DNA of 64,000 nt, from contig NZ_CP011492.1 of the NCBI RefSeq assembly GCF_001011035.1, positions 3,791,501-3,855,500 of the forward strand, read 5' to 3'. Under the pieces are notes generated by a model that saw only the letters and a list, made by a program, of their open reading frames with translations, was not told the origin of the DNA and ran no database searches. Shown in pieces: positions 1-63,006 of this stretch (position 1 is its first letter; each line of letters opens with the position of its first letter). The stretch is from Streptomyces sp. CNQ-509. GTDB taxonomy: Bacteria; Actinomycetota; Actinomycetes; Streptomycetales; Streptomycetaceae. A program made the translations under genes and the position numbers.

Positions 1-282
1 GATACGTGAGCCCGCGGCGAGTTCGCCGAGGGGAGTCCAGCCGTCGTACGTCAGGAACGGGTGGTTTGCCGTCGCCTCGATCTCCCGGCCCGAAGCGAGC
101 CGCAAGCGGAAGACCTCCTTGACCCCGCTGGAGAAGACGTGCGTCATCGTCCGTGGGACGACCCGGAGTTGCTCGTCCAGCGACCAGACCGGGATGTCCT
201 TCTCGCCGCGGGTGAGCAGCTCACCGATGGTGACCTCGCTGCCGGTGTCGGCTCGCAGAACGCGGGTCGACGCGGTGACGCA
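1..282 (-). mobile_element. Intein inserted in DnaB (N-terminal part only)
   Basis: After the DnaB sequence DLRESG the frame continues with CVTASTRVLRADTG, a standard intein block A with the nucleophilic Cys1. About 70 residues later comes ATANHPFLT, the block B pattern (TxxH). The 94 residues visible match no helicase sequence and are followed by the window edge, so it cannot be seen whether a homing endonuclease domain is present or whether the terminal HN plus Ser/Cys/Thr are intact. Inteins at this conserved helicase motif are known in other bacteria, for example the Synechocystis DnaB intein after RESG. If active, the protein splices itself out to give functional DnaB. Confidence 0.93.
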
Positions 283-1551
283 TCCCGATTCACGGAGGTC
301 AGAGACCATCGGCTTCTTGTCGGTGCGCTGTTCCGGGCCGCGGTTGAGCTGGGAGAGGGCGATCACCGGGACCTCCAGCTCCTTGGCCAGGAGCTTGAGG
401 TTCCGGGACATCTCCGAGACCTCCTGCTGGCGGCTCTCCGGGCGGCGGGAGCCGCCCGTCTGCATCAGTTGGAGGTAGTCGATGACGATCATCTGCAGGT
501 CGTTGCGCTGCTTCAGCCGACGGCACTTGGCGCGGATCTCCATCATCGACAGGTTCGGCGAGTCGTCGATGTAGAGCGGGGCGCCCGTCACCTCCGGCAT
601 CCGGCGGGCCAGGCGGGTCCAGTCGTCGTCGGTCATACTGCCGGAGCGCATGTGGTGGAGCGCCACGCGGGCCTCCGCGGAGAGCAGTCGCATCGCGATC
701 TCGTTGCGGCCCATCTCCAGCGAGAAGATGACGCTCGGCAGATTGTTCTTGATCGAACAGGCGCGGGCGAAGTCCAGGGCGAGCGTGGACTTCCCCATGG
801 CGGGGCGGGCGGCCACGACGATCATCTGGCCGGGGTGGAGGCCGTTGGTGAGGGAGTCGAGGTCGGTGAAGCCCGTGGGGACGCCGGACATCTGACCGCT
901 GCGGGAGCCGATGGCCTCGATCTCGTCGAGGGCGCCCTCCATGATCTCGCCGAGGGGGAGGTAGTCCTCCGCGGTGCGCTGTTCGGTGACGGCGTAGATC
1001 TCGGCCTGGGCGGAGTTGACGATGTCGTCGACCTCGCCGTCGGCCGCGTATCCCATCTGCGTGATCCGCGTGCCGGCCTCGACCAGGCGGCGCAGGATGG
1101 CGCGCTGGTGGACGATCTCGGCGTAGTACTCCGCGTTGGCGGCCGTGGGGACGGACTGGACGAGGGTGTGGAGGTAGGAGGCGCCGCCCACGCGGGCGAG
1201 CTCGCCGCGCTTGGTGAGCTCGGCGGAGACGGTGATGGGGTCGGCGGGCTCGCCGCGGGCGTAGAGGTCGAGGATCGCGGTGTAGACCGTCTCGTGCGCC
1301 GGGCGGTAGAAGTCGTGGCCCTTGAGGACCTCGACGACGTCGGCGATGGCGTCCTTCGACAGCAGCATGCCGCCGAGGACGGACTGCTCGGCGTCCAGAT
1401 CCTGCGGGGGTACGCGCTCGAAGGCGGCGGGGGCGCCGGGACCCCAGGGGTCATCCGGCGCGGGCTGGTCCGGCCGGCTGTGCCGGTCCTCGCGGCGCAG
1501 TGGACGGACGTCCCCGGGCATGGTGTCGACATAGTCCCCGTGCTCTGACAC
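1..1551 (-). CDS. dnaB: Replicative DNA helicase DnaB (partial, intein-containing)
   Basis: Hexameric helicase that unwinds DNA ahead of the fork. Only the first 517 codons are present; the gene leaves the window at base 1. The start is taken as GTG at 1551 because a GGAGG lies 11 bases upstream; an internal ATG at 1521 is possible. The N-terminal DnaB domain covers about residues 30-150, and the RecA-like core has a Walker A motif (ARPAMGKST, about residues 249-257). The sequence follows normal DnaB up to DLRESG, then switches to an intein beginning with Cys at 282. Long open frames on the opposite strand are GC-bias shadows. The neighbouring spacer holds DnaA boxes. Identification is firm; the missing 3' part must carry the rest of the intein and the C-extein. 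Confidence 0.96.
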   Translation of the reverse strand, partial: MSEHGDYVDTMPGDVRPLRREDRHSRPDQPAPDDPWGPGAPAAFERVPPQDLDAEQSVLGGMLLSKDAIADVVEVLKGHDFYRPAHETVYTAILDLYARGEPADPITVSAELTKRGELARVGGASYLHTLVQSVPTAANAEYYAEIVHQRAILRRLVEAGTRITQMGYAADGEVDDIVNSAQAEIYAVTEQRTAEDYLPLGEIMEGALDEIEAIGSRSGQMSGVPTGFTDLDSLTNGLHPGQMIVVAARPAMGKSTLALDFARACSIKNNLPSVIFSLEMGRNEIAMRLLSAEARVALHHMRSGSMTDDDWTRLARRMPEVTGAPLYIDDSPNLSMMEIRAKCRRLKQRNDLQMIVIDYLQLMQTGGSRRPESRQQEVSEMSRNLKLLAKELEVPVIALSQLNRGPEQRTDKKPMVSDLRESGCVTASTRVLRADTGSEVTIGELLTRGEKDIPVWSLDEQLRVVPRTMTHVFSSGVKEVFRLRLASGREIEATANHPFLTYDGWTPLGELAAGSRI

Positions 1552-37681: not shown

Positions 37682-38618
37682 CGGCCCCGCCGCCGGTCCG
37701 TACGTCCCCCACCGCGCCCCGCGCCGCTCCACCGCGCCGCTCCACCGTGCCCCGCGCCGCTCCACGGCGCCTCGCGGGCTCCCACGCGTCCCCGGCAGCC
37801 GGTTCTGCACAGGGCTTCCGCACGCGTCCGGCCGCATCCGCACGCCCCCCGGCACGTACCCGAACAGCCGAGCCCCCGCGCCGTGTTCGATTCCAGGCCC
37901 TGACCAGGCGCTTCTCCACACCTCGGCGGCTTTTCCGCCGTCCACACCCTGGGGATCGGCGAGTTACCCACGGGCGGGTGTGGACGCAGTCTGGACAACT
38001 CGCGTCCGCGCAGCTCATGGGGGTGTGGATTTGTGGGTGAGCGTTGCCCACACCCTGTGGACACCGTCCGCCGGTCCGATCGGCGCCGAGCGCTGTCCAC
38101 CGCGGAAGACCACTCACCCACAGAAAACCCCGCTCTGTACACAGCCTGTCCACAAGTTTGTCCACTGTTCGGCAACGCAACGCGCCCCTTCACCAGGTCG
38201 AGTGAAAGCCGTCACACCGAGAAGCAGGATTGGCTGTGCAGAAACCCGGGTAACTCTGGGGACGGAGCTGTGGCTAAGTGGCCCCCGCCTGTGAACGGCC
38301 TGTGTACAGCCGCGCATCGTCCACAGGAACAGCGGGTTATCCACTCTTCGTCCCCAACCCGCCTGTGGGCAAAATTCGCGGGCTGACCTGCGCAGACAAG
38401 GTTTTCCACGGTTTCCACAAGCCCTACTACTACCTCTACACGTAGCTAGCTCGGAATCCGCTTCGAAGCGGGGCCTGTGCACAAGTGCGGTCGACGGCCT
38501 CCAGGAGCGGCAGCGACGAGTTGACCCCGACCTGCCCCCTGTGTCGGTGCCGTGCGTCAGACTGGTCCCCCACACCAACCGAGCCGGCAAGGGCCGAGAG
38601 CACCAGGAGGCGGTCTCC
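37682..38618. other. oriC: Chromosomal replication origin oriC
   Basis: A 937-base non-coding region between dnaA and dnaN. About seventeen DnaA-box-like nonamers occur between 37912 and 38484: plus strand at 37912, 37938, 38044, 38093, 38114, 38146, 38158, 38317, 38337 and 38411; minus strand at 37979, 37990, 38024, 38032, 38056, 38364 and 38476. None is an exact TTGTCCACA or TTATCCACA; the best differ by one base (for example CTGTCCACA 38146, TTGTCCACT 38158). Streptomyces oriC is known to contain about nineteen degenerate boxes. The first 230 bases are box-free and GC-rich. Confidence 0.93.
38411..38445. promoter_or_regulatory. Candidate DnaA-trio unwinding element
   Basis: A DnaA box (GTTTCCACA, 38411-38419) is followed by a short GC spacer and by CTACTACTACCTCTA (38424-38438). 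Read 3' to 5' on the complementary strand this is GAT-GAT-GAT-GGA-GAT, matching the 3'-[G/A]A[T/A]-5' DnaA-trio pattern of the bacterial basal unwinding system. The order box, GC-rich spacer, trios is the known arrangement. Confidence 0.62.
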
Positions 38619-62695: not shown

Positions 62696-63006
62696 CTGCC
62701 GGACTCCCCCTCGCGGCCCCCGCGGGCAGAGTTATCCACAGGTCATCCACATGCTGTGCAGAAAGCAGAAGATCTGTGGATAACCTCAGCGGCGTTGACG
62801 CCGGTCCGACCGCGGTACACCGTCCGGACCAGCGGTGATTCCGCGACCTGCCAAGGAAAACGCAGGGGCGTTCGATAGCGAACGGCTGTCCCCACGGTAC
62901 GCACAGGATCGCTGACTACCTGTGGACAACTTCGGGCGTGGCTGCTTGCCCCACCCCTCTCAACGCGGCTGCGGCCCGGAGGTTACGTGGCCCGCCGCGG
63001 CGGGCG
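62696..63006. promoter_or_regulatory. DnaA-box cluster after crgA
   Basis: 311 non-coding bases between converging crgA and rhomboid genes. DnaA boxes: 62732-62740 TTATCCACA (perfect E. coli type), 62743-62751 TCATCCACA, 62775-62783 minus strand TTATCCACA (perfect), 62921-62929 minus strand TTGTCCACA (perfect Streptomyces type). Three perfect boxes within 200 bases, about 24.5 kb from oriC, indicate a high-affinity DnaA-binding site. S. coelicolor has been reported to hold such clusters around oriC. Confidence 0.72.

What the first reader, a model, noticed from the sequence alone, without database searches (positions are those of the whole stretch)
1..282. Intein in the DnaB helicase, cut by the window edge
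The DnaB frame runs normally to DLRESG and then reads CVTASTRVLRADTG and, about 70 residues on, ATANHPFLT: intein blocks A and B. Inteins at this helicase motif are known (Synechocystis DnaB), but a replication-essential gene in a Streptomyces-like chromosome next to oriC depending on protein splicing is unusual. Seen: the two blocks. Inferred: active splicing.
Basis: partly seen in the sequence, partly recalled or inferred. Interest (0 to 1): 0.72.

Follow-up and report, generated by a model that had tools for sequence, protein, structure and literature searches.

The report
Mobile intein in Streptomyces DnaB helicase
The chromosome's only copy of the replicative helicase gene carries a complete self-splicing protein insert with its own homing endonuclease; it is real, but it is an ordinary member of an insert family already known at this exact spot in mycobacteria and cyanobacteria and widespread in actinobacteria.

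Summary
Confirmed, and ordinary. The window is cut inside dnaB. The host genome supplies the rest: one 906-codon frame with a 423-aa intein (window -986..282), starting C and ending HN|S, with blocks A, B, F, G and two intact LAGLIDADG motifs. The C-extein SIEQDAD...MAQT follows, so neither refuting outcome occurred. Full length matches NCBIfam PRK07773.1 far above cut-off. AlphaFold gives a Hint domain plus LAGLIDADG endonuclease (pLDDT 92), closest in the splicing part to the Synechocystis DnaB intein. It is the class-1 "dnaB site a" intein, the site of M. smegmatis DnaBi2. It is rare in Streptomyces (6 of 393 species sampled) but common across actinobacteria. Relative to S. aculeolatus, the intein has fewer silent differences than its host gene, suggesting recent homing. 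Splicing and cutting are inferred, not shown.

A side result is more novel than the finding. In another actinobacterial genus, relatives of this intein have become free-standing genes, usually just downstream of an intein-free dnaB. They have lost splicing residues but keep both endonuclease motifs under purifying selection, resembling yeast WHO elements. My paper searches found no bacterial report, but that library is partial.

The parts
283..1551 (-). dnaB N-extein (residues 1-423), P-loop site (ARPAMGKST) uninterrupted
1..282 (-). N-terminal 94 residues of the 423-aa intein; the rest lies left of the window (L004:4014-5000, window -986..0), followed by the 60-aa C-extein (L004:3834-4013)
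241..282 (-). splicing block A, CVTASTRVLRADTG; Cys1 is the inferred first nucleophile, invariant in 84 relatives
49..75 (-). splicing block B, ATANHPFLT (TxxH); His74 invariant in 84 relatives

Best explanation
A class-1 intein of 423 aa carrying a LAGLIDADG homing endonuclease sits in the single dnaB gene at the 'site a' position (DLRESG|S, helicase motif H4). Mechanism, inferred from the family: the precursor is translated; Cys1 attacks the Gly-Cys bond (N-S shift); Ser+1 of the C-extein takes over the N-extein; Asn423, helped by His422, cyclises; the 483-aa DnaB is joined seamlessly. The freed intein can act as an endonuclease that cuts intein-free dnaB alleles at the same site, so that repair copies the intein in.
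For: Uninterrupted 906-aa frame with exact N- and C-exteins. Pfam Intein_splicing and LAGLIDADG_3 above cut-off; NCBIfam PRK07773.1 1304.6 bits against a cut-off of 780 over residues 43-905. Cys1, His74, His422, Asn423 invariant in 84 inteins, and the +1 residue Ser in all 83 relatives checked; these residues were not part of the search patterns. AlphaFold mean pLDDT 91.8, pTM 0.90; PDB matches: endonuclease-bearing inteins TliVMA Z 33.2 and PI-PfuI Z 25.4, Synechocystis DnaB intein Z 25.1 at 0.9 A over 136 residues, 45% identity. Purifying selection on splicing and endonuclease parts. Empty alleles keep DLRESG|SIEQDAD. Compared with S. aculeolatus, 24 of 334 silent sites differ in the intein but 61 of 366 in the extein, p 1.2e-4, whereas in five other pairs the intein differs more. 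The site-a intein of M. smegmatis DnaB is class 1, carries the endonuclease and splices fast (PMC6195587).
Against: No experiment here shows splicing or DNA cutting. The linker at residues 290-370 evolves fast and is modelled least confidently. In the host-gene tree, intein-bearing Streptomycetaceae largely cluster, so part of the distribution is inheritance with loss rather than transfer. The reduced silent divergence rests on one species pair.
Confidence: 0.97

Rival explanations
1. The intein splices but its endonuclease is dead or dormant, so it is now simply inherited.
For: Host-gene tree shows mainly clustered occupancy; shorter, reduced site-a inteins of 300 and 345 aa exist in two other Streptomyces genomes.
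Against: Both LAGLIDADG motifs intact with their Asp residues, endonuclease part under purifying selection, and reduced silent divergence from S. aculeolatus.
Confidence: 0.25
2. The intein is kept as a switch: slow or stress-sensitive splicing holds back active DnaB and hence replication.
For: The P-loop intein DnaBi1 of M. smegmatis is redox-inhibited (PMC6195587).
Against: In the same paper the site-a intein DnaBi2, which shares the site and class of this one, spliced fast and did not respond to the stressors; most Streptomyces do without.
Confidence: 0.08
3. Sequencing or assembly artefact, or a pseudogene copy of dnaB.
For: None found.
Against: Same intein in independent genomes at 97%, 90% and 76% identity; single contig, single gene copy, no stop.
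Confidence: 0.005

Closest known systems
DnaBi2 of Mycobacterium smegmatis and the M. tuberculosis DnaB intein (dnaB site a; PMC6195587)
   Same: Insertion in motif H4, Cys1, class 1 chemistry, endonuclease present, Ser+1.
   Different: Different genus; this dnaB has only the site-a intein, while M. smegmatis also has one in the P-loop. No direct alignment to those two proteins was made.
Synechocystis DnaB intein (PDB 1mi8)
   Same: Splicing domain superposes at 0.9 A over 136 residues with 45% identity; same insertion point from memory.
   Different: The solved chain lacks the endonuclease; the host is cyanobacterial.
NCBIfam NF005852 (PRK07773.1) replicative DNA helicase
   Same: Full-length match through exteins and intein, 1304.6 bits.
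   Different: The family is named for the helicase; the intein is not mentioned in the name.
S. aculeolatus DSM 41644 dnaB intein (L055)
   Same: 97% identical intein, same site.
   Different: Silent divergence of the exteins is about twice that of the intein.

Membership tests
Class 1 intein | Nucleophile (Cys/Ser) at residue 1 | tested here: met
   Cys1, invariant in 84 relatives
Class 1 intein | Block B TxxH | tested here: met
   TANH at residues 71-74
Class 1 intein | C-terminal HN and Ser/Thr/Cys at +1 | tested here: met
   VHN|S
Class 1 intein | Hint fold | tested here: met
   Predicted model, Z 17-25 to solved inteins
Class 1 intein | Splices in vivo or in vitro | not testable with these tools
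   Needs protein work
Class 3 intein (as M. smegmatis DnaBi1) | No nucleophile at residue 1 | tested here: not met
   Residue 1 is Cys
LAGLIDADG homing endonuclease | Two LAGLIDADG motifs with acidic residues | tested here: met
   HLLGDG and LRHLWATDG; PF14528 E 2e-25
LAGLIDADG homing endonuclease | Cuts the intein-free allele | not testable with these tools
   Indirect only: silent-site divergence and local codon footprint
dnaB site a intein | Insertion between DLRESG and SIEQDAD | tested here: met
   Junctions read directly; the same point in Streptomyces empty alleles and in actinobacterial relatives
NCBIfam NF005852 | Score above curated cut-off 780 | tested here: met
   1304.6 bits over residues 43-905

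The most novel reading that the evidence does not exclude
Not about the window itself but about its intein family: in another actinobacterial genus, dnaB site-a inteins have more than once left the reading frame and become free-standing endonuclease genes, mostly just downstream of an intein-free dnaB. They would spread without protein splicing, by cutting site a and replacing the 3' end of dnaB together with the gene, a bacterial counterpart of yeast WHO elements. Intein-free dnaB alleles there would carry recoded, cut-resistant sites.
Probability: 0.3. Interest if true: 0.65.

Novelty: new member of a known kind. Interest (0 to 1): 0.22.

Why it matters
By itself it adds one more actinobacterial DnaB intein; it shows that at least a few Streptomyces replicate with a helicase that must be spliced, and offers a genus where most species lack the intein for testing homing and cost. 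The side lead matters more: if the free-standing genes next to dnaB still cut site a, bacteria have a homing route that needs no splicing, so far described in yeasts (PMC7282813).

Tried and rejected
(1) Frame shift or ordinary DnaB in another frame: rejected, single open frame to the C-extein. (2) A second dnaB making splicing dispensable: the only other matches are in a DnaB N-terminal-domain protein. (3) Class 3 mechanism: rejected by Cys1. (4) Phage or plasmid source: phage matches are at most 49% identical over part of the intein or 25% over all; the best plasmid match is a 2.66-Mb Nocardia farcinica replicon at 57%; viral contigs reach 47%. None is a recent donor. (5) Co-conversion tract near the intein: DNA identity to S. 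aculeolatus shows no sharp step at the borders; only the silent-site comparison shows a difference. (6) In one search the neighbour-gene comparisons for loci that do not contain those genes are spurious and were not used.

Full report
What is there. The window (G000:C1:3791501-3855500 of an 8.04-Mb single-contig genome) begins inside dnaB, which lies on the minus strand. Window 283-1551 encodes DnaB up to DLRESG; window 1-282 encodes the start of an intein. The genome search gave the rest (L004, window position + 5000). The gene is one 906-codon frame, L004:3831-6551 minus: N-extein 423 aa, intein 423 aa (L004:4014-5282, window -986..282), C-extein 60 aa.

What it is. Pfam finds DnaB, DnaB_C, Intein_splicing and LAGLIDADG_3, all above cut-off. 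NCBIfam PRK07773.1 matches residues 43-905 with 1304.6 bits against a cut-off of 780. Splice residues Cys1, His74, His422 and Asn423 are invariant in 84 homologues, and the +1 residue is Ser in the 83 relatives checked; both LAGLIDADG Asp positions are 98-99% conserved (the endonuclease motif RHLWATDG was one of the search patterns, so its conservation is partly by selection of the sample). AlphaFold on a 40-sequence alignment gave pLDDT 91.8. Against solved structures the whole model matches the endonuclease-bearing inteins TliVMA (Z 33.2, 380 residues) and PI-PfuI (Z 25.4), and its splicing part the Synechocystis DnaB intein (Z 25.1, 0.9 A, 45% identity).

Placing it. In M. smegmatis, DnaBi2 lies at site a in motif H4, is class 1, carries the endonuclease and splices fast, while DnaBi1 sits in the P-loop (site b), is class 3 and redox sensitive (PMC6195587). 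The window intein has the features of DnaBi2; its P-loop is uninterrupted. I therefore file it as a dnaB-a intein. The regulatory story told for DnaBi1 does not carry over.

Distribution. In 393 Streptomyces genomes, 15 have a match to the intein; those confirmed inside DnaB at site a are 6 (G000, G105, G298, G073 full length; G045 and G297 of 300 and 345 aa). In 395 genomes of the class, 50 genomes in 28 of 137 genera have a strong match, most but not all in long DnaB-sized frames. In the host-gene tree of Streptomycetaceae the carriers largely group together (2 changes, weak backbone). Against S. aculeolatus, silent differences are 24/334 in the intein and 61/366 in the extein (Fisher p 1.2e-4), while in the five other pairs the intein is the more divergent part. 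I read this as recent exchange of the intein between these lineages; it is one pair only.

A footprint at the site. In Streptomyces empty alleles the third codon position is G or C in 98-100% of codons +1 to +8 after site a; in the 12 intein-bearing Streptomycetaceae it is 77-81%. Ser+1 is an AGY codon in 30 of 82 actinobacterial intein alleles and in none of 29 empty Streptomyces ones, a switch that needs two base changes. The alleles are related and these empty ones come from one genus, so the counts are not independent events; empty alleles of genus g4 (below) do include AGY.

A side lead that goes further. Some of the class-wide matches were not inside dnaB. In genus g4 (a group without a name in the tool; centre G395) and in G405 of another family, the homologue is a free-standing gene. 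In six of the seven intact cases its open frame begins 0-115 bases after the stop of a dnaB whose site a is empty; in G614 it is about 5 kb away. In L145, L146 and L149 it is even in the same frame, with one stop between. All seven have lost Cys1, the terminal Asn and, in six, the block B His, but all keep both LAGLIDADG motifs with their Asp. Two further copies are broken (G812, G821). The tree needs three changes for the free-standing state, with two forced by well-supported branches (quick tree, one very long branch). Within pairs, the endonuclease part is 76-85% identical with dN/dS 0.08-0.12, while the former splicing part is 37-60% identical (silent sites are near saturation). So splicing decayed and the endonuclease part is still selected. 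In the same genus about 35 of 148 genomes keep the intein in a dnaB-sized frame (judged by open-frame length), and site a is a local divergence hotspot: intein-empty pairs with 96% identity upstream have 73% within 10 codons of the site and 88% downstream (four pairs). Very rare codons (TTA, CTA, ATA, AGA, AGG) reach 14% and 7% at codons -8 to -5 in the free-standing and empty groups against about 0-2% over most of the gene. Several empty alleles have Ala at +1, which should not support this splicing chemistry (inference). This resembles yeast WHO elements, intein-like genes that sit downstream of FBA1, do not splice, and replace the 3' end of FBA1, making it resistant (PMC7282813). One WHO feature, a duplicated 3' fragment after the gene, was not looked for, and carriers did not stand out from other alleles in the divergence of the 3' part as a whole. 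The four paper searches on this found no bacterial case, but the library is partial.

Verdict. The finding as given is correct and ordinary: a new member of a well-known intein family in an essential gene. The free-standing derivatives deserve their own study.

Noticed in passing
L145, L146, L149, L181, L182, L184 (and L180, ~5 kb away); broken copies in L183, L185: Free-standing LAGLIDADG genes derived from the dnaB-a intein, next to an intein-free dnaB; splice residues lost, endonuclease motifs kept and under purifying selection. WHO-like layout.
   Followed up: partly
L188-L255, dnaB site a: Intein-free dnaB alleles in genus g4 are often recoded around site a with rare codons, and several have Ala instead of Ser at +1; possible cut-resistant alleles.
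   Followed up: partly
L006, L056, L058-L061 (P-loop, ARPAMGK): A second intein at the P-loop of dnaB; the same site holds two unlike types in Streptomycetaceae, one starting ALALDTPLP (no nucleophile at residue 1) and one starting C. The Cys type in G073 is 37% identical to the site-a intein.
   Followed up: partly
L076 and L105: Contigs labelled Candidatus Eisenbacteria carry the dnaB-a intein; the intein is about 60% identical to Streptomycetaceae though exteins are only about 47-50% identical, suggesting transfer between phyla or wrong binning.
   Followed up: partly
L042 and L045: Short inteins without endonuclease in the dnaB P-loop of two Streptomyces genomes whose site a is empty.
   Followed up: no
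37912-38484: Cluster of DnaA-box-like sites, probably oriC; the window has 23 matches against 4.5 expected.
   Followed up: no
1752-2014: Four DnaA-box-like sites (TTGTCCACA type) in the region upstream of dnaB.
   Followed up: no
62732-62929: A second small group of DnaA-box-like sites near the right end of the window.
   Followed up: no
G000:C1:4404240-4405187 (L003:1300-2418): A 372-aa protein with the DnaB N-terminal domain, two matched stretches, no helicase domain found.
   Followed up: partly
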